Source: Candidatus Poribacteria bacterium (GTDB lineage: Bacteria > Poribacteria > WGA-4E > GCA-2687025). From it: a DNA stretch of 36,179 nt. The DNA lies in assembly GCA_016866785.1 (NCBI GenBank), contig VGLH01000027.1, forward strand, positions 1 to 36,179, read 5' to 3'. Made by a program: the position numbers and the translations under genes. Of this stretch, positions 1 through 27,156 are shown piece after piece (the stretch's first letter is position 1; the number at the start of each line of letters is the position of its first letter). The notes beneath the pieces were generated by a model that saw nothing but the letters and a program-made list of their open reading frames with translations, had not been told where the DNA came from and ran no database searches.

Positions 1-489
1 GTCCGAAGGCACGGTGAGGACGATGTCGCACAACTCGGCGAGCTTGCCGCCTGTGCGGCCGGTCATGCCAATGGCACGAGCGCCGCGCGCGCGCGCCGCC
101 TCGACGGCTCGCAGCACGTTGGGCGAGTTGCCGCTGGTCGAGATGGCGACGAGGACATCTCGCGCCTCGACCCAGGCTTCGACCTGTCGCGCGAACACGT
201 CGTCGTAGCCGTAGTCGTTGGCAATCGCTGTAACGGTCGAGCTGTTCGCTGTCAGCGCGATGGCTGGCAGCGCCCGCCTCTCTCGCAGGAACCGACCGAC
301 CAGTTCTCCGGCAAGGTGCTGCGCGTCCGCCGCGCTGCCGCCGTTTCCCAGGAACACCGTCTTGCCGCCGCTGGCATACGATTCGATCAGCATCCGCGCT
401 GCCGCTTCGATCTGCGGCAGGAGCTCCTGCGCGACCCGGCGCTTCACCTCCGCGCTGGCGAGAAGCTGCCGGAGAATGTCGGTCTGCAA
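1..489 (-). CDS. gmhA: GmhA-like SIS-domain sugar phosphate isomerase (3' end cut off)
   Basis: Reading the minus strand gives 163 codons with no stop before the window edge. The protein matches sedoheptulose 7-phosphate isomerase (GmhA), which makes D-glycero-D-manno-heptose 7-phosphate for lipopolysaccharide or S-layer heptose. Visible landmarks are GNGGSAADAQHLAGEL (residues 48-63), AIANDYGYDDVF (88-99), ISTSGNS (116-122) and GMTGRTGGKLAELCD (141-155). His58 and Glu62 align with the metal/catalytic His61 and Glu65 of E. coli GmhA; the C-terminal ligands lie outside the window. No ATG fits. The TTG at 489-487 gives a normal-length N-terminus and has AGGA about 8 nt upstream. It follows the aldehyde dehydrogenase stop by 32 nt, so it is probably the last gene seen of the BMC operon. 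The family call is firm; the exact substrate is less certain, since SIS isomerases vary. Confidence 0.88.
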   Translation of the reverse strand, partial: MQTDILRQLLASAEVKRRVAQELLPQIEAAARMLIESYASGGKTVFLGNGGSAADAQHLAGELVGRFLRERRALPAIALTANSSTVTAIANDYGYDDVFARQVEAWVEARDVLVAISTSGNSPNVLRAVEAARARGARAIGMTGRTGGKLAELCDIVLTVPSD

Positions 490-521: not shown

Positions 522-1991
522 TCAGCCGCCGTGCGTATGGATCGAGAGGTTTGAGATGATGCTCATACGGCGTTCGATTGTGAAGTGGCGGGGTCGGGTG
601 AATCCTTCACCGGTCTTTCCCGCGACCGTCATCGCCAGGAAGCCCTCGCCGCCGAGCCCGCCGCAGGTGAACGAGGGCCCGTTGACGACGAAGATGGTGA
701 CCTGCGCCGCCTGAGCGAACGTCCGGATGCGATCCAATCGAGCCGTGTGCAGCATCGCCGTATGGTGTCTGCCGCCTTCCGCCTTCACAGCGAGCGCCAC
801 CGCCTCTTCGAACGTCTTGGCGCGGACGATGGGGAGGACGGGCATCAGGAACTCATCCATGACCAACAGATGGTCGTGCGGCGTTTCGAGGATGGCGACC
901 AGCGTATCCTTCGGCGCGCGAATCCCCGCAGCCTCCAAGATGACCCCTGCGTTCTTGCCGACCATTTCGGGGTTCGCATGACCGTCCTTCGCGACGACGC
1001 GCATCAGGAGAGGGATCTCGTGCGGCTTGACGAGGTAGCAGTCCGCATTGACGAGCTCGCGGATCAGCTTGTCCGCGACCGCCTCGACGACCATGCACTC
1101 CTTCTCGCCGATGCAGAGCAGGTCGTTGTCGAACGACGCCCCAGCGGCGATGTCCTTCGCCGCCTTCGCGATGTCCGCCGTCTCGTCGACGACCACCGGC
1201 GGGTTGCCCGGGCCGGCGGCAAACGCCTTCTTCCCGACGGAGAGCGCCGCCTTGACGACTCCCGCTCCACCCGTCGCGACGACGGCGTCGATGTCGGGAT
1301 GCTCCATGATCGCCTTCGCAGTGCGCATCGACGGAGCTCCGACGGATGTGAGGACGTTCCGCGGGCCCCCGGCATCGACGATGGCGTCGTTCAGGTAGAC
1401 CATCGTCTGAAGCGTGCACTTCGCGGCTCGTGGATGCGGGCTGAAGACGACCGTGTTCCCTGAAGCGACCATGATGATCGCGTTGTTGATGGCGGTCGAT
1501 GTGGGGTTGGTCGTCGGCGTGATCGCGTTGATCGTGCCAATCGGCGCGCGCTCGATGATGAGCGCCCCGTAGTCGCCCGTGAGAGCCTCCGACTTGAGGT
1601 CTTCGACGCCCGGGCTCAGGTCGGCAGCGCCGGTGTTCTTCATCACCTTGTGCTCGGCGCGTCCGATGCCGGTTTCGCTGACGGCGAGATCGGCAAGCTC
1701 CTTGGCGTGCTTGCGCGCCGTCACGCGGATTGCCTCGATGATCCGCTTGCGGTCATCGATGCTGAGAGCGATCAGCTCCCGTTGAGCGGCATTTGCCGCT
1801 TCGACCGCGCCATCGGCGGAGAGGAAGATCCCGTGACCCGAGAGCACCGGCGTCCCGGCTCTGGAGTCTTCGTCCGATTTCGCGCCTTCGGACGCGCCAG
1901 GAGCCGTGGGCTCGGCGGAACCCGAACCCGCCAGCTTACCGACCACCTGAGCGACGATCTCGCGGACCCTTGCCTCATCAATGGATGCCAT
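522..1991 (-). CDS. BMC-associated CoA-acylating aldehyde dehydrogenase (EutE/PduP type)
   Basis: The 489-residue protein belongs to the EutE/PduP family, which converts an aldehyde, CoA and NAD+ to acyl-CoA inside microcompartments. The catalytic Cys is Cys293 in NDLLCIGEKE; ITPTTNPTSTAINNAI (157-172) and AAGPGNPPVVVDE (268-280) are typical family segments. Residues 4-20 form a short amphipathic helix (IDEARVREIVAQVVGKL) followed by an Ala/Gly/Ser/Pro/Glu-rich linker to about residue 47, which is the layout of an N-terminal encapsulation peptide. The ATG at 1991 has a strong GAGGAG site 6 nt upstream. It lies 95 nt after the shell protein gene. The likely substrate is lactaldehyde given the adjacent class II aldolase, but propionaldehyde or acetaldehyde cannot be excluded from sequence. 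Confidence 0.93.
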   Translation of the reverse strand: MASIDEARVREIVAQVVGKLAGSGSAEPTAPGASEGAKSDEDSRAGTPVLSGHGIFLSADGAVEAANAAQRELIALSIDDRKRIIEAIRVTARKHAKELADLAVSETGIGRAEHKVMKNTGAADLSPGVEDLKSEALTGDYGALIIERAPIGTINAITPTTNPTSTAINNAIIMVASGNTVVFSPHPRAAKCTLQTMVYLNDAIVDAGGPRNVLTSVGAPSMRTAKAIMEHPDIDAVVATGGAGVVKAALSVGKKAFAAGPGNPPVVVDETADIAKAAKDIAAGASFDNDLLCIGEKECMVVEAVADKLIRELVNADCYLVKPHEIPLLMRVVAKDGHANPEMVGKNAGVILEAAGIRAPKDTLVAILETPHDHLLVMDEFLMPVLPIVRAKTFEEAVALAVKAEGGRHHTAMLHTARLDRIRTFAQAAQVTIFVVNGPSFTCGGLGGEGFLAMTVAGKTGEGFTRPRHFTIERRMSIISNLSIHTHGG

Positions 1992-2086
1992 GGTGTCTCC
2001 TCAGAAGAGGCATAGGCGGCATCGCACCGACACCGCGCCGTTGCCGACGCAGGATGCGGCCGCCTCACGGTCGCGGAGGTCTAGCT

Positions 2087-2365
2087 TCACGATACGGAGG
2101 GCAGGATCGCCTCGATCTCGGAGTGCGGCCGCGGGATGACGTGGACGGACACCAGTTCACCGACGGAGCGCGCGGCTTCCGCGCCTGCTTCGGTCGCAGC
2201 CTTGACGGCACCGACATCGCCACGAACCATCACGGTGACCAGCCCGCCGCCGATCTTCTCCAAGCCGACGAGATGGACGTTCGCCGCCTTCACCATGGCA
2301 TCCGCAGCCTCGATAGATCCCACAAGGCCCTTCGTCTCGATCAGACCCAGCGCTTCACCAGCCAT
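2087..2365 (-). CDS. BMC-H hexameric microcompartment shell protein (PduA/EutM type)
   Basis: A 92-residue single BMC-domain protein. It opens with [20 protein letters not shown], the typical start of PduA/EutM/CcmK-like proteins, and continues with [21 protein letters not shown] and the [15 protein letters not shown] helix. Such subunits form hexagonal tiles of the shell facet, with a central pore for small metabolites. A GTG at 2371 is in frame, but AAGGAG is only 3 nt from it and 9 nt from the ATG at 2365, so the ATG is chosen. The gene sits between the aldolase (90 nt upstream) and the aldehyde dehydrogenase (95 nt downstream). No pentameric BMC-P or trimeric BMC-T gene is visible in the window, and a closed shell normally needs a pentamer, so others must lie elsewhere. 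Confidence 0.95.
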
Positions 2366-2455
2366 CTGCACGTTCTCCTTGTTTCGGAACGCCGCCTCGC
2401 ATCATCGGAGGCAGACCTCACGCCGTCGGAATCGGTCCATGGGCGATCATCGGTG

Positions 2456-3259
2456 TCAGAGCAGCCCGCGCTCTTTCAGCACTTCCGTCGCCACGCGCGT
2501 GATGAGCGCCGTCAACTCCGCGTCGCCAGCGGGCTTCTGCGCTGCGGGAGCCGGGCGCTCACGCTCTGCCTGGAGCGCCTGCATACGCGGCGTCACGTCG
2601 CACAGGGGAACCTTCTTTCCGTATCCCAGCCGGTCTCGCAGCTCCAGCAACTGGTTCGCCTGATCCGCCGTCAGCTCTCGCTCGCCGCCGAGACTGCGGG
2701 CGACCCACGTGATGTGCGCCGTGTGCTCCATCGTCTCCATCTTGTAGTAAGCCGACATCGGATCGGCTCCGACGGTCACCGCGCCGTGGTTGGCGAGGAG
2801 GATCGCGTCGCACGTCTCGATGATGCCGTCGATGGAGTCCGGCAGCGCCTGCGATCCGGGCGTGCCGTACGGAGCCAGCGGGATGCAGCCGAACGACACG
2901 ATCGTCTCCGGCAGCGTCAGTTGGTCCAACGCGATGCCAGCGACCGCGAACCCCGTCGCGATGGGCGGATGCGCGTGAAGGACAGATCGCACGTCGGGTC
3001 GCTTGCGGTAGCAGTGGAGATGCAGCCGTATCTCGGACGATGCCTTGAGGTAGCCCTCGACCTGTTCGCCAACCAGGTTCACTTTGCAGAGCATGTCGGG
3101 CGTCAGAACGCCTTTGCTGACGCCGGTCGGAGTCGCGAGGATGATGTCGTCGGTCAGCCTTGCCGTGATATTGCCGTCGTTGGACGCGACATATCCCTTC
3201 GCATAGACACGACGACCGACCTCGCAGATCTCGTGCCTCAGCGCGCCTTCGTTGCTCAT
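2456..3259 (-). CDS. Class II aldolase (fuculose/rhamnulose 1-phosphate aldolase type) with C-terminal targeting tail
   Basis: A 267-residue zinc aldolase of the AraD/FucA fold. Glu76, His95, His97 (VLHAHPP) and His158 (ANHGAVTVG) match Glu73, His92, His94 and His155 of E. coli L-fuculose-1-phosphate aldolase, so the metal site and catalytic acid are intact. Family members of this kind split fuculose or rhamnulose 1-phosphate to DHAP and lactaldehyde. After the catalytic domain comes a Pro/Ala-rich linker (about 232-248) and a terminal amphipathic helix, ALITRVATEVLKERGLL (251-267), absent from plain FucA and fitting an encapsulation peptide. The start is the ATG at 3259; a longer frame opening at 3331 would begin on the -35 box of the promoter at 3303-3331, so it is rejected. 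First gene of the BMC operon. Confidence 0.92.
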   Translation of the reverse strand: MSNEGALRHEICEVGRRVYAKGYVASNDGNITARLTDDIILATPTGVSKGVLTPDMLCKVNLVGEQVEGYLKASSEIRLHLHCYRKRPDVRSVLHAHPPIATGFAVAGIALDQLTLPETIVSFGCIPLAPYGTPGSQALPDSIDGIIETCDAILLANHGAVTVGADPMSAYYKMETMEHTAHITWVARSLGGERELTADQANQLLELRDRLGYGKKVPLCDVTPRMQALQAERERPAPAAQKPAGDAELTALITRVATEVLKERGLL

Positions 3260-3302: not shown

Positions 3303-3331
3303 AGTCTAGCATGGGCGGCGGAACCGGTCAA
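3303..3331 (-). promoter_or_regulatory. Sigma70-type promoter of the BMC operon
   Basis: On the minus strand TTGACC (3331-3326) and TAGACT (3308-3303) are separated by exactly 17 nt. Transcription would begin near 3296, leaving a leader of about 37 nt before the aldolase ATG at 3259. The location between the aldolase and the divergent-from-nothing upstream gene end at 3369 fits an operon promoter. Confidence 0.72.
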
Positions 3332-3368
3332 GCAGGGGATCGCGCCGTCGCAGGCAAGAGCAGGACAC

Positions 3369-5327
3369 TCAGATCCAGAAGATCCGGTTCCCCTGAGTGC
3401 CGGTTAGGAAGTCGATCACGAGCCACGTCCCATTGCAGACGAACTGCCCCAGGATGAACCCCAGAAAGATGGGTCTGCCCCGGCGGTAGAGGCGGATGCC
3501 GCCGATGCGCAGTAGGCTCCACTTCGCCAGCCACGCCACGAACACGGTGAACCAGAGGTGGTCCATCATCCAGATCGGTCCGATGGCGAAGCCGATGGGA
3601 TGGAACGGGAACCACAGGAACCGTGTGCGGAGCCCCATCAGAAGCAGCATGCCTGCCGCCCCGACTCCCTTGAGCGCCCATCCCGCCATGTTGGGCGGCT
3701 CCGGGTTGAGCAGCTTGCCGATAACGAACTCGTACGGAGCCACTGCCCCGCCTCCGAAGAACCAGTCGTTGCCGTTCAAGCCGCCATGCTGATACGCCAG
3801 AGGCAGGTACGTCACGACCGACGACACGAACGCGACGACAATGGCGGCGACGATGCCCCAGAAGACCCGCCGTCGTCCGCCGGACACGCCTTCGACGATG
3901 CGGAGCCCGTTCGCCGTGGACGCCATGACGAAGGTGCGGATGTCGGCTCCCCATACGTACGTGAGCGCAAGCGACACGAGGCCTCGGGGCCCGATGGCGC
4001 GCGACCCGAATCCCGAGATGACGAACGACGATCCGATGGTGGATGCGACCGCCTCCGCCATCCCGCTCTCGGCGACGATGCGCGTCAGACCCAGGAAGAG
4101 CGCCATCGCCGCGCCGAGGAACGTCAGCGTAACCCACAGCGGCATTCCGGTCGCCGCGAGCCAACCCACCATGTAGAGAGTTCCGACGACGATACAGACG
4201 ATCGCGGCTCGGTACGACATGATCTCGCCGGAATCGCCAACGTCCGTCCCGCTGCGCAGCGCCTTGCGCAACACATCCGCCAGATGTCGCCGCGCCGACC
4301 ACAGCCCGCCCAAGACCAGGACGGTGATGGCTCCCATGCCCTGGTGGGCGAACACCGGTGAACGCGACCCGTAGATGCCGAGGTTCTCCGTCAGCCGCAG
4401 GTTGTAGACCTTCATCAGACCTCGTACGGCGAGGCTCAGCAGGTTGAAGAACCACATGCTGAACGCGACGTCGAGATGCACCAAGTAGAAGAAGCCCATG
4501 AGCGGCATCGAGACGCGGAAACGGAGATACTCGACGTTGCGGAAGATCGGGAACCCGATCTCCGGTTCGAGGTACGGAACTGTCGGCATGTAGTGGTGAA
4601 TGCCTGTCAGGCTGCCAAGCCCAAACGCGATTCCGAAGCCGACCCACATCGCCGTCTGTCGGTAGATCGCCGCGTAGCCCTTGCCGTCATCGGACCCCGA
4701 CATCTCCATCGGGAGCTGCGCCAACGGATACACGAGCCTTTCGTGTTCCATCCACTGCCGGCGCAGGATCACCATGAGCGAGATCGACACGACGTACAGC
4801 GCGGCGAGGAAGGTTCCCCAAGCCAAGAGCGGGCGAGCCCAGGCTCCCCATGGAACCTCGTGTTCCATGCCGGAGAAGCCTTCGTAGAAATCGCGGATCG
4901 TCTTGGTTCCCTCGGGAACCAACCACGATGGGATGTGCGGCTGGATCATCTCCGCCCAGCTGTTCTCCGCCGTGGCGAAGTAGAACGGCGACGTGATGAT
5001 CGGCAGAAGCTGCGCCACGACGCCCATCGTCGGGATCGCGCAGGCGACCAGCATCATGACGTACATGACGCGCAGTTCGTCGCGCCCGTAAGCCCACTGG
5101 CGGCGAACCCGACCCAGCAGCGGATTGACGCCGGCGGTCCACACGAAGAACAGGAACACGGCGGCGGCGGCGCTGAAGTCGATCGCCATGTACGAACCGT
5201 GAATGACCATCATGTTCGTCGCCGTGCCGACGCCGACGAACGCGCAGAGCGCTGCGCCGGTGATGTACGCCCGCAGACCGGGAGGATGGGGTGGCGAAGA
5301 AGCGCTCACGTCGAAATGGCTCAGCAT
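3369..5327 (-). CDS. Polytopic membrane protein, DUF6785/DUF6784-like
   Basis: A 652-residue integral membrane protein with about a dozen or more hydrophobic helices, starting near residues 20-40 and ending with a helix near the C-terminus (FLGFILGQFVCNGTWLVIDFL). It resembles the DUF6785/DUF6784 proteins common in poribacterial and planctomycete genomes; that is recognition by overall pattern, not a search. Cytoplasmic-looking segments such as RRQWMEHERLVYPLAQLPMEM recall oligopeptide-transporter (OPT) proteins, so transport is possible but unproven. The start is set at the ATG at 5327, which overlaps the stop of the debranching enzyme gene in an ATGCTGA junction, suggesting translational coupling. 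A frame opening 84 nt earlier would overlap the debranching enzyme deeply and is not used. Substrate unknown. Confidence 0.8.
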   Translation of the reverse strand: MLSHFDVSASSPPHPPGLRAYITGAALCAFVGVGTATNMMVIHGSYMAIDFSAAAAVFLFFVWTAGVNPLLGRVRRQWAYGRDELRVMYVMMLVACAIPTMGVVAQLLPIITSPFYFATAENSWAEMIQPHIPSWLVPEGTKTIRDFYEGFSGMEHEVPWGAWARPLLAWGTFLAALYVVSISLMVILRRQWMEHERLVYPLAQLPMEMSGSDDGKGYAAIYRQTAMWVGFGIAFGLGSLTGIHHYMPTVPYLEPEIGFPIFRNVEYLRFRVSMPLMGFFYLVHLDVAFSMWFFNLLSLAVRGLMKVYNLRLTENLGIYGSRSPVFAHQGMGAITVLVLGGLWSARRHLADVLRKALRSGTDVGDSGEIMSYRAAIVCIVVGTLYMVGWLAATGMPLWVTLTFLGAAMALFLGLTRIVAESGMAEAVASTIGSSFVISGFGSRAIGPRGLVSLALTYVWGADIRTFVMASTANGLRIVEGVSGGRRRVFWGIVAAIVVAFVSSVVTYLPLAYQHGGLNGNDWFFGGGAVAPYEFVIGKLLNPEPPNMAGWALKGVGAAGMLLLMGLRTRFLWFPFHPIGFAIGPIWMMDHLWFTVFVAWLAKWSLLRIGGIRLYRRGRPIFLGFILGQFVCNGTWLVIDFLTGTQGNRIFWI

Positions 5328-7342
5328 TCGCCGCCATGCTTCGGCGACGGTTGATAGGCGCCAGCGTCCCAAGCCGCGCGCAAGACCTCGGCAAGGCTCC
5401 AAGCCTGCCACGGACAGCCGCGTGCCCGGTGGGGCTCATGACCATCGTACAGCTCGGCGACGCCGCCGATACCGGGAGCGTCTCGATCCAGCGCCAGACG
5501 GTTCAGCCAGTCGGCGAGTTGGGCCCGGAACGCGTGTCCGTCGCCGAAGGCGTTGCGGTACGCCGTCACGTAGGGACCCCAGAGCCAACTCCACACCGGG
5601 CCCTGATGGTAGATCGAGTCGCGTCGTCGCGCGTCGCCGTCGTAAGTGGCAGCGTAGCCAGGATGGTTCGGCGGAAGGGTACGAAGCCCGAACGGCGTGT
5701 GCAGCGCGTCCGTAACGCGCCGCATGACCCGCTGCTCGTCGGCTCGATCCAGACACCGATAGTGCAGGCTGATCGCGATCACCTGATTGGGTCGCAGTGT
5801 GGGGTCGTCGCCGTCCGGACCGTCGATCACGTCGTAGAGCGCGCCGCTTCTGGGATTGGGGAACCGCGCTCGGAACGCGGCGCGGGCTCGGTCGGCGTCT
5901 TCGGCGCACATGTCCGCGTAGGAATCGTCGCCGTAGGTTCGCGCCAGGCGCTCCACGGTTCTCAACGCGCTGTGCCACAACGCGTTGATCTCGACCGGCT
6001 TGCCGACGCGCGGCGTTGCCACCCAATCGCCGATCTTGGCGTCCATCCAGGTGAGCTGCGATCCGGGGACGCCGGCATGGAGCAGACCGTCGTCGTCGAC
6101 GGCGATCCCATACCGCGTTCCGAACCGATGCGCCTCCAATATCGACTTCAGAGTCGGGTACCACGAATCTCGGACGACCGGATCGTCTGGCACGTCAACC
6201 GCGTAGCGGCGGATCGCCTCGACAAACCAGAGCGTGGCATCGGCGGTGTTGTAGGAAGGGGTCTCGCCGGTGTCGGGGAACCGGTTCGGGATCATCCCGC
6301 CGTCGCAATAGGAGGCGAAGGCGTCGAGCACTTCGCGGGCGAGCCATGCCTCGCCTCGGGCGATTGTCAGACCGGGCAGCGCGATCATCGTGTCCCTGCC
6401 CCAGTCGGTGAACCATGGGTAGCCGGCGAGTATCGTCCACTGCGAATCTCCCCGGCGGACGATGTAGTCTCCGCCTCGGCGCACGGACTCCCGCAGGAAG
6501 TCGGCGGCGGGGGGCGATACCCAGTCGGCGACGACGATGGGACGCGAAGCCGACTCACGGCGTTGGCGTTCCGATGCCAGAAGAGTGTCACCGTCTCCGC
6601 TGAGATCGCACCCAACGCCGGCGACGACCCAGAAAGACGGGCAGTCGGGAGTCAGGCGACCGATGAAGGAGCCCGGGCTCCAATGATCTTCGAGGTGGTC
6701 GAGACCCCGCTCATCGGCTTCGACAGCGTAGCGCTTCTGTCGGACCCACCACGAGTCGTGCGACACCGCTGCTCCTGAATGACGCATGGCGAGCGGCGGG
6801 TATCGGGCGGGCGGGCGGTACGTGACGAGGTCGGCGGCGGCGTCCAACGGGCGCGAGAGCGTCGCGTCCTCGCGCTGGAGGGCGTGATAGTCGCGCCATG
6901 CCAGGTGAGGTCGCGCCTCGAAAACCCCGCCTGCGCCTTCGAGCAGTCGGTAGACGACGACGACCAGGTTCCTGCCGTGGATCGATGCGACCGACTTCTC
7001 GATCCGCGTGCCGTCCGGCAGCGCGAAGTGCCACGTCGGATAGGGATATGCGTCGAACCGAACGATGTGCCGGTACCCATGCGGGTGAACGGCGCCTGGG
7101 TACGCGTGCGACGCTAGCGACCACGACGCACCGTCGGCGCTGTGCAGCGTTTCGTCCAAAGCCGCCAGTGTCACGGTTCGGTCTGTGGGTGGACGCAGCG
7201 ATGCGACGAGCAACGCGTGGTAGCGGCGTGTCGCGATGCCGGACACGGTTCCCGAGGCGAAACCCCCGATCCCGTTGGGCTCCAGCCATTCGAGTCGGGT
7301 CGCGCGGCGAAGGTCTTGGCAGACGTCGGCGCCGTAGGTCAT
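5321..7342 (-). CDS. Glycogen debranching enzyme (amylo-alpha-1,6-glucosidase family, GH133-like)
   Basis: A 673-residue cytoplasmic protein with the two-domain layout of bacterial/archaeal amylo-1,6-glucosidases: an N-terminal beta domain opening with WLEPNGIGGFASGTVSGI (19-36) and TRRYHALLVASL, and a C-terminal alpha/alpha barrel with GYPWFTDWGRDTMIALPGL and a final CPWQAWSLAEVLRA segment. It would hydrolyse alpha-1,6 branch glucose in glycogen or limit dextrins. No signal peptide is seen. GGAGG lies 5 nt before the ATG at 7342. The gene starts the minus-strand pair that continues into the membrane protein, and is divergent from tadA; the 145-nt gap between them also holds a tandem repeat of the 8-mer CGTCGGCG (7376-7391). 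Confidence 0.9.
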   Translation of the reverse strand: MTYGADVCQDLRRATRLEWLEPNGIGGFASGTVSGIATRRYHALLVASLRPPTDRTVTLAALDETLHSADGASWSLASHAYPGAVHPHGYRHIVRFDAYPYPTWHFALPDGTRIEKSVASIHGRNLVVVVYRLLEGAGGVFEARPHLAWRDYHALQREDATLSRPLDAAADLVTYRPPARYPPLAMRHSGAAVSHDSWWVRQKRYAVEADERGLDHLEDHWSPGSFIGRLTPDCPSFWVVAGVGCDLSGDGDTLLASERQRRESASRPIVVADWVSPPAADFLRESVRRGGDYIVRRGDSQWTILAGYPWFTDWGRDTMIALPGLTIARGEAWLAREVLDAFASYCDGGMIPNRFPDTGETPSYNTADATLWFVEAIRRYAVDVPDDPVVRDSWYPTLKSILEAHRFGTRYGIAVDDDGLLHAGVPGSQLTWMDAKIGDWVATPRVGKPVEINALWHSALRTVERLARTYGDDSYADMCAEDADRARAAFRARFPNPRSGALYDVIDGPDGDDPTLRPNQVIAISLHYRCLDRADEQRVMRRVTDALHTPFGLRTLPPNHPGYAATYDGDARRRDSIYHQGPVWSWLWGPYVTAYRNAFGDGHAFRAQLADWLNRLALDRDAPGIGGVAELYDGHEPHRARGCPWQAWSLAEVLRAAWDAGAYQPSPKHGGEC

Positions 7343-24746: not shown

Positions 24747-25544
24747 ATGAAATGGGCCCTCGGAGCGACGACCCGGCCTTGGGGCGCGTTCTCGTTCGAC
24801 CAGGCGTGCGCTTCCATCGCGGCGACGGGCTACAGCGACGTCGCGCTCTACGCCAATGAAGGCAGGATCGTCCTGCGCGCCGATTCGACGGACGAGGACG
24901 TGCGCAGCGCCGCCGCGTCGCTGACCAAGCACGGGCTCAAGGGTTCCATGCTCCTCGGTGGACCCGAGCTCGGCGGCGACGCCGGCGCGGCAGAGGAGGC
25001 TTTCCGTCGGCTAGTGGACGTCTCCGCCGCGGCGGGCATTCGCTATCTCATGAACGGCGGAACGGAGCGCCCCGACACCTTCGACAGGTACTTCGACCTG
25101 ATGCGCCGCGTGGCTCCGTATGCTGAGAAGAAAGGCGTCGAGCTCCAGCTCAAGCCTCACGGCGGCATCGGACTGACCGGAGCCGATCTGGCGCGCGCAG
25201 TCGAGCGCGTCGGCAGCCCCGCGTTCACCATCTGCTACGATCCCGGCAACATCATCTACTACACGCGCGGCGAGGTGCGCCCGGAGCCCGACGTTCACGA
25301 CGTGGCGAAGCATGTGACGACCTGCATCATCAAGGATTGCGTCGTCGTCGACGGCAAGCCCGACGTGTGGATTCAGCCCGGCAGCGGTCTCGTGGACTTC
25401 CGCAGCGTTCTCGGATCGCTCGCCGACGCGGGCTTCGACGGGCCCTTCTACATCGAATGCTTGGGCGGCAGCGAGCTCGCCGACATCGACCGCCGCTCGC
25501 AGGAGACGCACGACTGGCTGCGCGACTTACTCGCCAACCTGTAA
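24747..25544 (+). CDS. Sugar phosphate isomerase/epimerase-like TIM barrel protein
   Basis: A 265-residue protein of the xylose isomerase-like (AP endonuclease 2 fold) superfamily. Strand ends typical of the metal site are visible: GVELQLKPHGG (about 130-140), FTICYDPGNIIYY (about 153-165), CIIKDC (about 193-198) and FYIECLGGSE near the C-terminus. These enzymes act on sugars or inositols and are commonly cytoplasmic. There is no signal peptide. AAGGAG lies 7 nt upstream of the ATG. It is followed by a strong hairpin and a putative glycosidase, suggesting a carbohydrate role, but the substrate cannot be named. Confidence 0.85.
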   Translation: MKWALGATTRPWGAFSFDQACASIAATGYSDVALYANEGRIVLRADSTDEDVRSAAASLTKHGLKGSMLLGGPELGGDAGAAEEAFRRLVDVSAAAGIRYLMNGGTERPDTFDRYFDLMRRVAPYAEKKGVELQLKPHGGIGLTGADLARAVERVGSPAFTICYDPGNIIYYTRGEVRPEPDVHDVAKHVTTCIIKDCVVVDGKPDVWIQPGSGLVDFRSVLGSLADAGFDGPFYIECLGGSELADIDRRSQETHDWLRDLLANL

Positions 25545-25561
25545 CCAGCGCTACCCGGCAC

Positions 25562-25587
25562 TGGGCCCGACCGACGTGTCGGGCCCA
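25562..25587 (+). terminator. Strong GC-rich hairpin between isomerase and glycosidase genes
   Basis: TGGGCCCGAC (25562-25571) and GTCGGGCCCA (25578-25587) form a perfect 10-bp stem with a 6-nt loop. No T-tract follows, so it may be a weak or Rho-assisted terminator, or an RNA-processing/stability element within an operon. Confidence 0.5.
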
Positions 25588-25623
25588 TCCGTAACTCCCG
25601 ACGCCCTGGACAGGAGGCGCGCA

Positions 25624-27156
25624 ATGGCGGAGTTCCCTGTTCCCCAGCACTGCCCACACGACTACACGCTCGAGAGCGACACACCGCACGCCAACCCGTT
25701 CTTCATTCGGCTCGAAGCCACGTTCGTCCACGAGTCAGGCGCGACCATCGCGAGTCTGCCGGGGTTCTACGACGGCGATGGGGCGTGGAAGGTCCGGTTC
25801 ACGCCGACGCTCCTCGGTGTCTGGACGGGCATGACGAGCTCGGACGACCCGCAGCTCGACGGCATCGAACTGACGCCGCTGCAGTGTGTTCCCGGCTCCC
25901 ACATGCGCGTCCATGGTCGCGTGCGGATCGATCCCGACCATCCGCACCGGTTCCGGTTCGAGGACGGTACGCCGTTCGTGCCGCTGGGGTTCGAGTGCGA
26001 CTGGCTCTTCGCCCTGCACCAGGTCGATCCCGAGTCGTGCCGGACGCTCATCGATCTGATCGCCCGTCGTGGATTCAACGAGATCATCACGAACGTCTAC
26101 GCGCACACGGGGTTCTCGACCGCTGGCGACCCGCACGTCTACGGACCTCCCAAACTCTACGCCTTCGGGGGAACCAACGACGAGCCCGATCACTCCGCCA
26201 TGAACGTCGCGTTCTTCCGCGATTTCGACCGGATGATGGCGTATCTGCACGCGAAAGGGATCGTCGTCCACCTGATGATCCAGGTGCAGAACAAGAAGGT
26301 GCGGTGGGCGCAACGGCGGTCGCGCGAAGACGACCTGTTCTGGCGCTATGTCGTCGCCCGTTATCAGGCGTATGGGAACCTGGTGTGGGATGTCGGCAAG
26401 GAGAGCTACAACCTGTACCGCGAGACGGGCAGCCATGACTACACGCTGGACCGCATCGGTCTCATCCGAGAAGCCGATGCGTACCGCCATCTGGTCACCG
26501 TGCACGACGCGGTGGCGGGCTCCAACGCGCACAACTCCGTCGTGGATGACGCCTGCGACTTCGTCTCCGACCAGATCCATCTGCATGACACGGCGCTCTA
26601 CAACCGCGAAGCCGTGCGTCGCTGGCGGCTCCGCGACAAGCCCTACGTGAACATCGAGTACGGCTACGAGGAGGGCGCCGAGTCGCTCAAGACCTACCGA
26701 GGCGGCACGACGACCACGTGGGAGGATGTCCTGCTCTGGACGGTCGCCATCTACGTTGGCGGCGGGTATCCCGGGTACTACTACAGCAACACGTCGTGGG
26801 ATCTGATCGCTTACGAGCCTGAGCCTCCCGGATGGGCGCGCTACCAGCAACTGGTCGCGCTCCTGTCACAGGTGCAGATCAACCGCATGGTTCCCGACAA
26901 CGACTTCGTTGATCGCGGATTCTGCCTCGCGGAACCGGGCGAGCAGTACCTGGTCTTCCTGCCGGAGGGCGGCGACGTGCGACTCGACCTGACGGCTGTC
27001 CTGCCCGATGCGCCGCTCGAAGCCGAGTGGATGGCGCTCTACTCCGGCGAGCGTCGCGGCGAGCGCGTGGACGGGCGGGGGTTCACGACGCGCCTGACCA
27101 ACCCGCTGCCGGACGGGCAGACGCCATGCGTCGTCCTGGTGCGTCGCCAAGGCTGA
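25624..27156 (+). CDS. DUF5060/DUF4038 (apiosidase-like) glycoside hydrolase
   Basis: A 510-residue protein with an N-terminal Ig-like DUF5060 domain (about 1-90, with WKVRFTPTLLGVWTGM), a DUF4038-type TIM barrel (about 95-415; DGTPFVPLGFECDWLFAL, GFNEIITNVYAHTGF), and a small C-terminal beta domain (QYLVFLPEGGDVRLDL). Such proteins are related to GH140 apiosidases. Candidate catalytic acids are Glu in WDVGKESYN and Glu in PYVNIEYGYEEG. No signal peptide, so it may work in the cytoplasm. The ATG at 25624 has AGGAGG 6 nt upstream; an alternative start 48 nt earlier overlaps no better site. Converges on ackA with a 7-nt gap. Family call is good, substrate unknown. Confidence 0.85.
   Translation: MAEFPVPQHCPHDYTLESDTPHANPFFIRLEATFVHESGATIASLPGFYDGDGAWKVRFTPTLLGVWTGMTSSDDPQLDGIELTPLQCVPGSHMRVHGRVRIDPDHPHRFRFEDGTPFVPLGFECDWLFALHQVDPESCRTLIDLIARRGFNEIITNVYAHTGFSTAGDPHVYGPPKLYAFGGTNDEPDHSAMNVAFFRDFDRMMAYLHAKGIVVHLMIQVQNKKVRWAQRRSREDDLFWRYVVARYQAYGNLVWDVGKESYNLYRETGSHDYTLDRIGLIREADAYRHLVTVHDAVAGSNAHNSVVDDACDFVSDQIHLHDTALYNREAVRRWRLRDKPYVNIEYGYEEGAESLKTYRGGTTTTWEDVLLWTVAIYVGGGYPGYYYSNTSWDLIAYEPEPPGWARYQQLVALLSQVQINRMVPDNDFVDRGFCLAEPGEQYLVFLPEGGDVRLDLTAVLPDAPLEAEWMALYSGERRGERVDGRGFTTRLTNPLPDGQTPCVVLVRRQG

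What the first reader, a model, noticed from the sequence alone, without database searches (positions are those of the whole stretch)
522..3259. Compact BMC locus with targeting peptides at opposite ends of its two enzymes
Seen: the aldehyde dehydrogenase has an N-terminal amphipathic helix plus low-complexity linker, the aldolase has a Pro/Ala linker plus C-terminal amphipathic helix, and a BMC-H gene lies between them. Established: encapsulation peptides of BMC cargo look like this, and fucose/rhamnose-type compartments pair a class II aldolase with a CoA-acylating dehydrogenase. Inference: this is a deoxysugar-degrading compartment. No pentamer, phosphotransacylase or alcohol/lactate dehydrogenase is present here, so the locus is either split across the genome or a reduced variant.
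Basis: partly seen in the sequence, partly recalled or inferred. Interest (0 to 1): 0.75.

Follow-up and report, generated by a model that had tools for sequence, protein, structure and literature searches.

The report
Scattered poribacterial microcompartment with tagged aldolase
This is one of about six scattered gene clusters that together encode a protein-shelled compartment in an uncultured bacterium (Candidatus Poribacteria), and it supplies a likely enzyme, an aldolase carrying a docking tail, that could make the aldehyde this previously unexplained compartment consumes.

Summary
On the minus strand lie a class II aldolase (2456-3259), a facet-type BMC-H (2087-2371) and a CoA-acylating aldehyde dehydrogenase (522-1991). 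The dehydrogenase has an N-terminal helix and the aldolase a C-terminal helix, each behind a hypervariable linker. Across relatives the helices are conserved and the linkers are not. A motif model built only from other cargo proteins ranks the aldolase tail first among untrained sequences. The locus is neither complete nor reduced. The same genome carries three BMC-P genes, PduL, a PduS/PduT-like pair and further BMC-T genes on other contigs, so this is a fragmented (FRAG-like) metabolosome. The organism is Candidatus Poribacteria, whose scattered BMC genes were known but of unclear function. BMC-P occurs in 84/85 phylum genomes. The tagged aldolase occurs only outside one clade of derived families and was probably lost once. 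The deoxysugar substrate is plausible but not shown: the aldolase scores below every FucA/RhaD/OtnC cut-off, and fucose isomerase is weak here and absent in close relatives. Also noticed: a shell protein with four BMC domains, and a DHDPS-family enzyme tagged in a relative.

The parts
2456..3259 (-). Class II aldolase (PF00596), 267 aa, ATG start at 3259
   Evidence: Pfam E 1e-45; catalytic SSE, HAH and NHG motifs conserved in all homologues; homologues in the same position in G008, G009, G004, G011, G005
2525..2593 (-). Aldolase linker, residues 223-245 (Pro/Ala-rich, hypervariable)
   Evidence: Pairwise identity 0.20 against 0.61 in the catalytic part; no PDB homologue's match extends past residue 227
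2471..2524 (-). Aldolase C-terminal encapsulation peptide, residues 246-263 (contains ELTALITRVATEVLKE)
   Evidence: Motif rank and shuffles; conservation; helix in model; absent from the aldolase of BMC-less G002
2087..2371 (-). BMC-H shell protein, facet type with KAAN and PRPH motifs; likely true start ATG 2365
   Evidence: PF00936 E 4e-31; close to PduA/EutM and the H. ochraceum BMC-H; next to AldDH in nearly all relatives
522..1991 (-). CoA-acylating aldehyde dehydrogenase (PduP/EutE family), 489 aa
   Evidence: NCBIfam NF011927 548 bits, cut-off 403; best PDB 4c3s E 4e-112; Cys293 invariant; in 73 of 85 genomes
1926..1976 (-). AldDH N-terminal encapsulation peptide, residues 6-22 (EARVREIVAQVVGKLAG)
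   Evidence: Present in all 32 homologues read; identity 0.61
1833..1925 (-). AldDH low-complexity linker, residues 23-53
   Evidence: Pairwise identity 0.20, 20% gapped

Best explanation
The locus is the enzyme-bearing core of a fragmented catabolic microcompartment (metabolosome) in a deep-branching member of Candidatus Poribacteria. Shown from sequence: the facet hexamer, the AldDH and an EP-tailed class II aldolase form one conserved cluster. Three pentamer genes (C3, C71 x2), PduL and a TIGR02536-like protein with N-terminal EPs (C68), a PduS/PduT-like pair (C20), and a BMC-T, a four-BMC-domain protein and a DHDPS-family enzyme (C155) lie elsewhere in the genome. Inferred: the two tails dock their enzymes to the inner face of BMC-H tiles. 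The aldolase splits a ketose-1-phosphate into DHAP and a short aldehyde (lactaldehyde if the sugar is a 6-deoxyhexose, acetaldehyde or glycolaldehyde otherwise). AldDH turns the aldehyde into acyl-CoA, PduL turns that into acyl-phosphate, and CoA is thereby recycled inside. NADH may be reoxidised through PduS/PduT across the shell, which would explain why no alcohol or lactate dehydrogenase sits with the BMC genes.
For: Own-genome shell and PduL genes. BMC-P in 84/85, PduL in 81/85, AldDH in 73/85 phylum genomes. Aldolase-BMC-H-AldDH cluster kept in G008, G009, G011, and with one or two inserted genes in G004 and G005. Tail conservation and motif test. Tailless aldolase in the only BMC-less genome, G002. 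AldDH closest to the 4c3s enzyme. The C. phytofermentans fucose/rhamnose BMC has the same neighbourhood of shell gene, FucA and PduP (PMC3557285). PduL and the TIGR02536-like protein carry matching N-terminal EPs in several genomes. Phylum named.
Against: No encapsulation has been measured. The aldolase is missing from the derived families f5-f8, which keep the rest of the core, so it is not essential to the compartment. Its chemistry is unproven: the best profile is OtnC, a decarboxylase, below cut-off. The genome is a 291-contig MAG with 3.4% contamination, so membership of each satellite contig rests on binning, although parallels in relatives support it. Hydrophobic moment alone does not single out the tails.
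Confidence: 0.75

Rival explanations
1. Specific deoxysugar version: the compartment degrades L-fucose or L-rhamnose; the aldolase makes L-lactaldehyde from fuculose-1-P or rhamnulose-1-P.
For: Same enzyme pairing as GRM5/PVM. A fuculokinase-like FGGY kinase at C5 scores 250 bits, best of all families. A three-domain fucose-isomerase-family protein occurs in the aldolase-bearing G004, with PF02952 hits in G003, G005 and G011; none in 10 derived genomes without the aldolase.
Against: Kinase below cut-off (471). Isomerase only 34 bits in the own genome and not found in G007, G008, G009. Aldolase FucA models score 66-103 bits against cut-offs of 250 or more. The isomerase/aldolase co-occurrence is confounded by phylogeny, and G001 and G002 have isomerase-family hits without a BMC-cluster aldolase.
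Confidence: 0.35
2. The PF00596 enzyme is not an aldolase in function but an OtnC-like decarboxylase or other class II family member, so the compartment handles a sugar-acid phosphate or another substrate.
For: Top NCBIfam hit is 3-oxo-tetronate-4-phosphate decarboxylase (134.6 bits); top PDB hits 6voq/6vop.
Against: Below the OtnC cut-off of 250. OtnC would yield DHAP, not an aldehyde for the adjacent AldDH (established biochemistry, from memory). The metabolosome pattern favours an aldehyde source.
Confidence: 0.2
3. The DHDPS-family enzyme, not the class II aldolase, is the main aldehyde source (a 2-keto-3-deoxy acid aldolase giving pyruvate and an aldehyde); the class II aldolase is accessory.
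For: In G011 the orthologue ends in a textbook EP (QISRIVAEVLKQL, 26.6 bits, the highest score of any untrained sequence) and lies next to a BMC-T gene. In the own genome it lies directly after the BMC-T genes on C155.
Against: Found in only 2 of 85 genomes at the threshold used. The own copy lacks the EP helix. No subfamily assignment passes a cut-off.
Confidence: 0.12
4. The compartment degrades 1,2-propanediol, as proposed for sponge Poribacteria from transcription of the PduL-BMC-H region.
For: Published proposal with PduL/BMC-H co-transcription and in situ localisation (PMC5087111). PduS and PduT-like genes here.
Against: No diol dehydratase was seen in any BMC locus read here, though the whole genome was not searched for it. 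It leaves the tailed aldolase unexplained in this genome.
Confidence: 0.1
5. The tails are not targeting signals and the aldolase is a cytosolic enzyme that happens to be encoded here.
For: Amphipathicity alone is unremarkable.
Against: Conserved helix behind an unconserved linker, motif match to other cargo, and no tail where BMC genes are absent.
Confidence: 0.06

Closest known systems
FRAG-type metabolosomes (Sutter et al. 2021, PMC8217296)
   Same: Shell genes at several genomic places, three BMC-P genes, an AldDH beside a shell gene
   Different: FRAG types are described as mostly remote from known enzymes and without an obvious aldehyde-generating enzyme; here a tagged class II aldolase is in the AldDH/BMC-H cluster
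Poribacterial BMC genes (Kamke 2014, PMC3909097; Jahn 2016, PMC5087111)
   Same: Same phylum, scattered BMC and EutN/CcmL genes, BMC-H beside PduL
   Different: Those sponge-derived genomes gave no similarity to known BMC enzymes and a 1,2-propanediol proposal; an aldolase cluster is not described in the text read
PVM and GRM5 fucose/rhamnose compartments
   Same: Class II aldolase, PduP-type AldDH and shell gene together
   Different: Single consolidated loci with alcohol or lactate dehydrogenase, regulator, kinase or glycyl radical enzyme; none of these is in the cluster here
ACI type (Acidobacteria)
   Same: pfam00596 aldolase with a C-terminal EP, BMC-P triplet
   Different: ACI keeps its AldDH on a satellite locus and has a hydroxyacid dehydrogenase; here AldDH is in the aldolase cluster; different phylum

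Membership tests
Functional BMC (metabolosome) | BMC-H plus BMC-P genes in the genome | tested here: met
   nine PF00936 domains, three PF03319 genes, all over cut-off
Functional BMC (metabolosome) | CoA-acylating AldDH and PduL phosphotransacylase | tested here: met
   AldDH over NF011927 cut-off; PduL over NF011652 cut-off
Functional BMC (metabolosome) | Encapsulation peptides on cargo | tested here: met
   By sequence only; encapsulation itself not testable
FRAG-type metabolosome | Shell genes dispersed over several genomic locations | tested here: met
   Five contigs C27, C20, C155, C3, C71, each with ordinary flanking genes; PduL on C68
FRAG-type metabolosome | BMC-P triplet (one member each of the gray and orange clades plus a third) | tested here: inconclusive
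   Three BMC-P present; clade identity not determined
FRAG-type metabolosome | Shell-protein subtype composition by the authors' HMMs | not testable with these tools
   Those HMMs are not held
PVM / GRM5 deoxysugar compartment | Class II aldolase with fuculose/rhamnulose-1-phosphate specificity | tested here: inconclusive
   Aldolase_II met; FucA and RhaD models below cut-off
PVM / GRM5 deoxysugar compartment | Deoxysugar isomerase and kinase in the genome | tested here: inconclusive
   FucK-like kinase below cut-off; fucose isomerase 34 bits; RhaA not searched
PVM / GRM5 deoxysugar compartment | Alcohol or lactate dehydrogenase, regulator and shell genes consolidated in one locus | tested here: not met
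   None in the clusters read
ACI type | pfam00596 aldolase with C-terminal EP | tested here: met
ACI type | AldDH consistently on a satellite locus, away from the aldolase; Acidobacteria only | tested here: not met
   AldDH in the aldolase cluster; Poribacteria
PDU (1,2-propanediol) compartment | Diol dehydratase PduCDE | not tested

The most novel reading that the evidence does not exclude
In deep-branching Poribacteria one shell is fed by two unrelated tagged aldolases (class II and DHDPS family) giving the same kind of short aldehyde, and in this genome its shell includes a natural four-BMC-domain protein, so that three chains would build two covalently linked pseudohexamers. Loss of the class II aldolase in the derived families then marks a switch of substrate with the shell and the AldDH/PduL core unchanged.
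Probability: 0.2. Interest if true: 0.7.

Novelty: new variant of a known kind. Interest (0 to 1): 0.5.

Why it matters
The poribacterial compartment has been seen by sequence and in situ for a decade without an agreed aldehyde source. A conserved cluster of shell hexamer, AldDH and a docking-tailed aldolase in the early-branching families gives a specific, testable candidate. It also shows a compartment whose signature enzyme can be dropped while the shell and AldDH/PduL core persist, which bears on how such organelles change function. The four-domain shell protein, if real, would be an unusual tile architecture; none was found in the held literature.

Tried and rejected
A scan of genome contigs with the AldDH gave only eight loci but fixed the phylum. 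The first AldDH tree used a wrong ORF for the outgroup G001 and was discarded, and one rebuild attempt failed; one search is the valid tree. Hydrophobic moment was tried as a test of the tails and found uninformative. A hidden C-terminal EP in the own DHDPS-family protein, in another frame, was looked for and not found. A chance or artefact reading of the finding was rejected on the conservation pattern. Literature searches found no report of a four-BMC-domain protein in the held library, which does not prove there is none.

Full report
What is there. On the minus strand of the window lie, in transcription order, a class II aldolase (3259-2456), a BMC-H shell protein (2371-2087, probably starting at ATG 2365) and an aldehyde dehydrogenase (1991-522). 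The dehydrogenase passes the curated cut-off of the PduP/EutE family (548 against 403 bits). Its best solved relative is 4c3s, which I recall as the enzyme of the Clostridium phytofermentans fucose compartment; that identity is from memory. The BMC-H has the KAAN and PRPH motifs that PMC8217296 gives for facet-forming 'basal' hexamers.

Are the tails real encapsulation peptides? Four lines of evidence agree. First, the conservation pattern. In 32 dehydrogenases the first 20 residues are 61% identical pairwise, the linker 20%, the catalytic part 66%. In seven aldolases the last helix is 42%, the linker 20%, the catalytic part 61%. Second, similarity to other cargo. A 13-residue motif model built only from N-termini of AldDH, PduL and a TIGR02536-like protein puts the aldolase C-terminus above every one of 52,517 windows in 153 own-genome ORFs except two training members. 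Only 21 of 10,000 shuffled tails reach that score. Relatives' aldolase tails score 9.5 to 22, except in G011, whose best window is internal; a C-terminal helix-like tail is visible in its alignment but not picked up by the model. Third, a natural control: the single genome of the phylum set with no BMC-P, no BMC domain, no PduL and no such AldDH is G002. Its aldolase, 53-54% identical, stops at residue 210 with no linker or helix. Fourth, the single-sequence model of the aldolase is poor overall (mean pLDDT 36) but its one confident stretch is the helix 246-263. Amphipathicity as such is not evidence here: 21-27% of 17-mers in the genome's ORFs are as amphipathic.

Where is the rest of the organelle? 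They are elsewhere in the same assembly (4.35 Mb, 291 contigs, 95% complete, 3.4% contamination). Three BMC-P genes: one alone on C3 between radA and a 5-formyl-THF cyclo-ligase gene (names by my reading of the translations), two in tandem on C71. A PduT-like BMC-T beside a PduS/RnfC-like protein on C20. A BMC-T, a four-BMC-domain protein and a DHDPS-family enzyme in a row on C155. PduL and a TIGR02536-like protein, both with N-terminal EPs, on C68. These contigs carry ordinary unrelated flanking genes. This matches the FRAG description of Sutter et al. (shell genes at up to six places, a BMC-P triplet, occasionally a neighbouring AldDH; PMC8217296).

Organism and evolution. Named relatives are Candidatus Poribacteria. 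Scattered poribacterial BMC genes were reported in 2014, with no similarity to known BMC functions (PMC3909097). In 2016 BMC-H and PduL were shown co-transcribed, BMC-H was localised in situ and a 1,2-propanediol role was proposed (PMC5087111). Across 85 held genomes of the phylum BMC-P is found in 84, PduL in 81 and the AldDH in 73, nearly always next to BMC-H. The aldolase is found in 10: the window's family (G000, G008, G009, partial G007), f2-f4 (G003, G004, G005, G011), tailless in G002, and a 31% paralogue in G001. The cluster is kept contiguous in G008, G009 and G011, and with one or two inserted genes in G004 and G005. On an AldDH tree the genomes without the aldolase (families f5-f8) form one clade with 100/99 support, and the aldolase-bearing ones lie outside it. 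One loss in the ancestor of f5-f8 is the simplest reading, although the position and state of G001 leave the root state open. The named loci include contigs matching G040 and G039 of family f8; the hosts of those records were not checked here.

How it most likely works. Inferred chain: ketose-1-phosphate enters; the docked aldolase releases DHAP and an aldehyde; AldDH makes acyl-CoA and NADH; PduL makes acyl-phosphate and frees CoA. NAD may be regenerated by PduS through the PduT-like shell protein, which would explain the absence of an alcohol or lactate dehydrogenase beside the BMC genes. Steps shown by sequence: presence and family of AldDH, PduL, PduS-like, PduT-like, and the tails. Not shown: substrate, activity, encapsulation.

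Which substrate? The deoxysugar reading has support: the same gene trio occurs in the C. phytofermentans fucose/rhamnose locus (PMC3557285). One of five FGGY kinases in the genome is best matched by L-fuculokinase (250 bits, cut-off 471). Fucose-isomerase family hits occur in aldolase-bearing G003, G004, G005 and G011 and in none of ten aldolase-less derived genomes. Against it: the isomerase hit in the own genome is only 34 bits, G007, G008 and G009 have none, and the association is confounded by descent. The aldolase itself is below all curated subfamily cut-offs and nearest to OtnC-type proteins. I hold deoxysugar use at about 0.35 and a generic ketose-phosphate aldolase role as more likely than not.

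A second possible signature enzyme. The DHDPS-family protein on C155 has a relative in G011 that is encoded beside a BMC-T gene and ends in an EP-like helix with the highest motif score of any untrained sequence (26.6 bits). The own copy lacks the helix and instead has an N-terminal extension ending in an 'LTPMAIDYLRARGVEL' motif resembling the C-terminal motif of the TIGR02536-like protein. At the threshold used it was found in only two genomes.

Novelty and verdict. Membership: metabolosome features are met by sequence; FRAG features are met as far as testable; ACI is not met on AldDH placement and phylum; PVM/GRM5 membership is not met on locus consolidation and undecided on substrate. It works like a PVM/GRM5-type aldolase metabolosome, but it is not filed as one. 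I call it a new variant of a known kind: a fragmented poribacterial metabolosome whose early-branching form carries a tagged class II aldolase. Interest 0.5. The system type and the phylum's BMCs are already published, while the candidate aldehyde source, its phylogenetic pattern and the four-domain shell protein are useful and testable.

Noticed in passing
L013:1332-2489 (-), own-genome contig C155: A single 385-aa ORF with four PF00936 domains (four hmmscan stretches), own start and ribosome site, coding GC3 pattern throughout, domains 22-47% identical to each other. The next best matches to it in the phylum set cover only one or two domains. Three chains would make two pseudohexamers.
   Followed up: partly
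L152:8313-8999 (-) (G011:C8) and L013:118-1291 (-): DHDPS-family enzyme next to BMC-T genes; the G011 copy ends in an EP-like helix QISRIVAEVLKQLK, the own copy has an N-terminal extension instead.
   Followed up: partly
L017:670-1410 and 3311-4063 (+), contig C68: PduL and a TIGR02536-like protein of unknown function, both with N-terminal EPs; the pair is adjacent in several relatives (L154, L155, L156, L158). A C-terminal 'ITPLARDLAKRSGI' motif recurs across BMC-linked proteins.
   Followed up: partly
L012:3594-4961 and the adjacent BMC-T (contig C20): PduS/RnfC-like protein beside a PduT-like BMC-T that keeps a cysteine at 'ARTICSGKYL', a possible FeS site; suggests NAD regeneration across the shell.
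   Followed up: partly
G008, G009: Close relatives of the window genome seem to have a very small shell set: one BMC-H, three BMC-P and no BMC-T found.
   Followed up: no
window 3369-5411 (-): DUF6785/DUF6784 membrane protein just upstream of the aldolase; a 31% homologue also flanks the aldolase in G003 (L093:1511-3535). Possibly a transporter.
   Followed up: no
window 24747-27156 (+): Xylose-isomerase-like TIM barrel followed by an apiosidase-like glycoside hydrolase (PF13204), a possible plant-sugar utilisation pair.
   Followed up: no
window 1-489 (-): SIS-domain protein (phosphoheptose-isomerase-like), cut by the contig end, directly downstream of the AldDH on the same strand.
   Followed up: no
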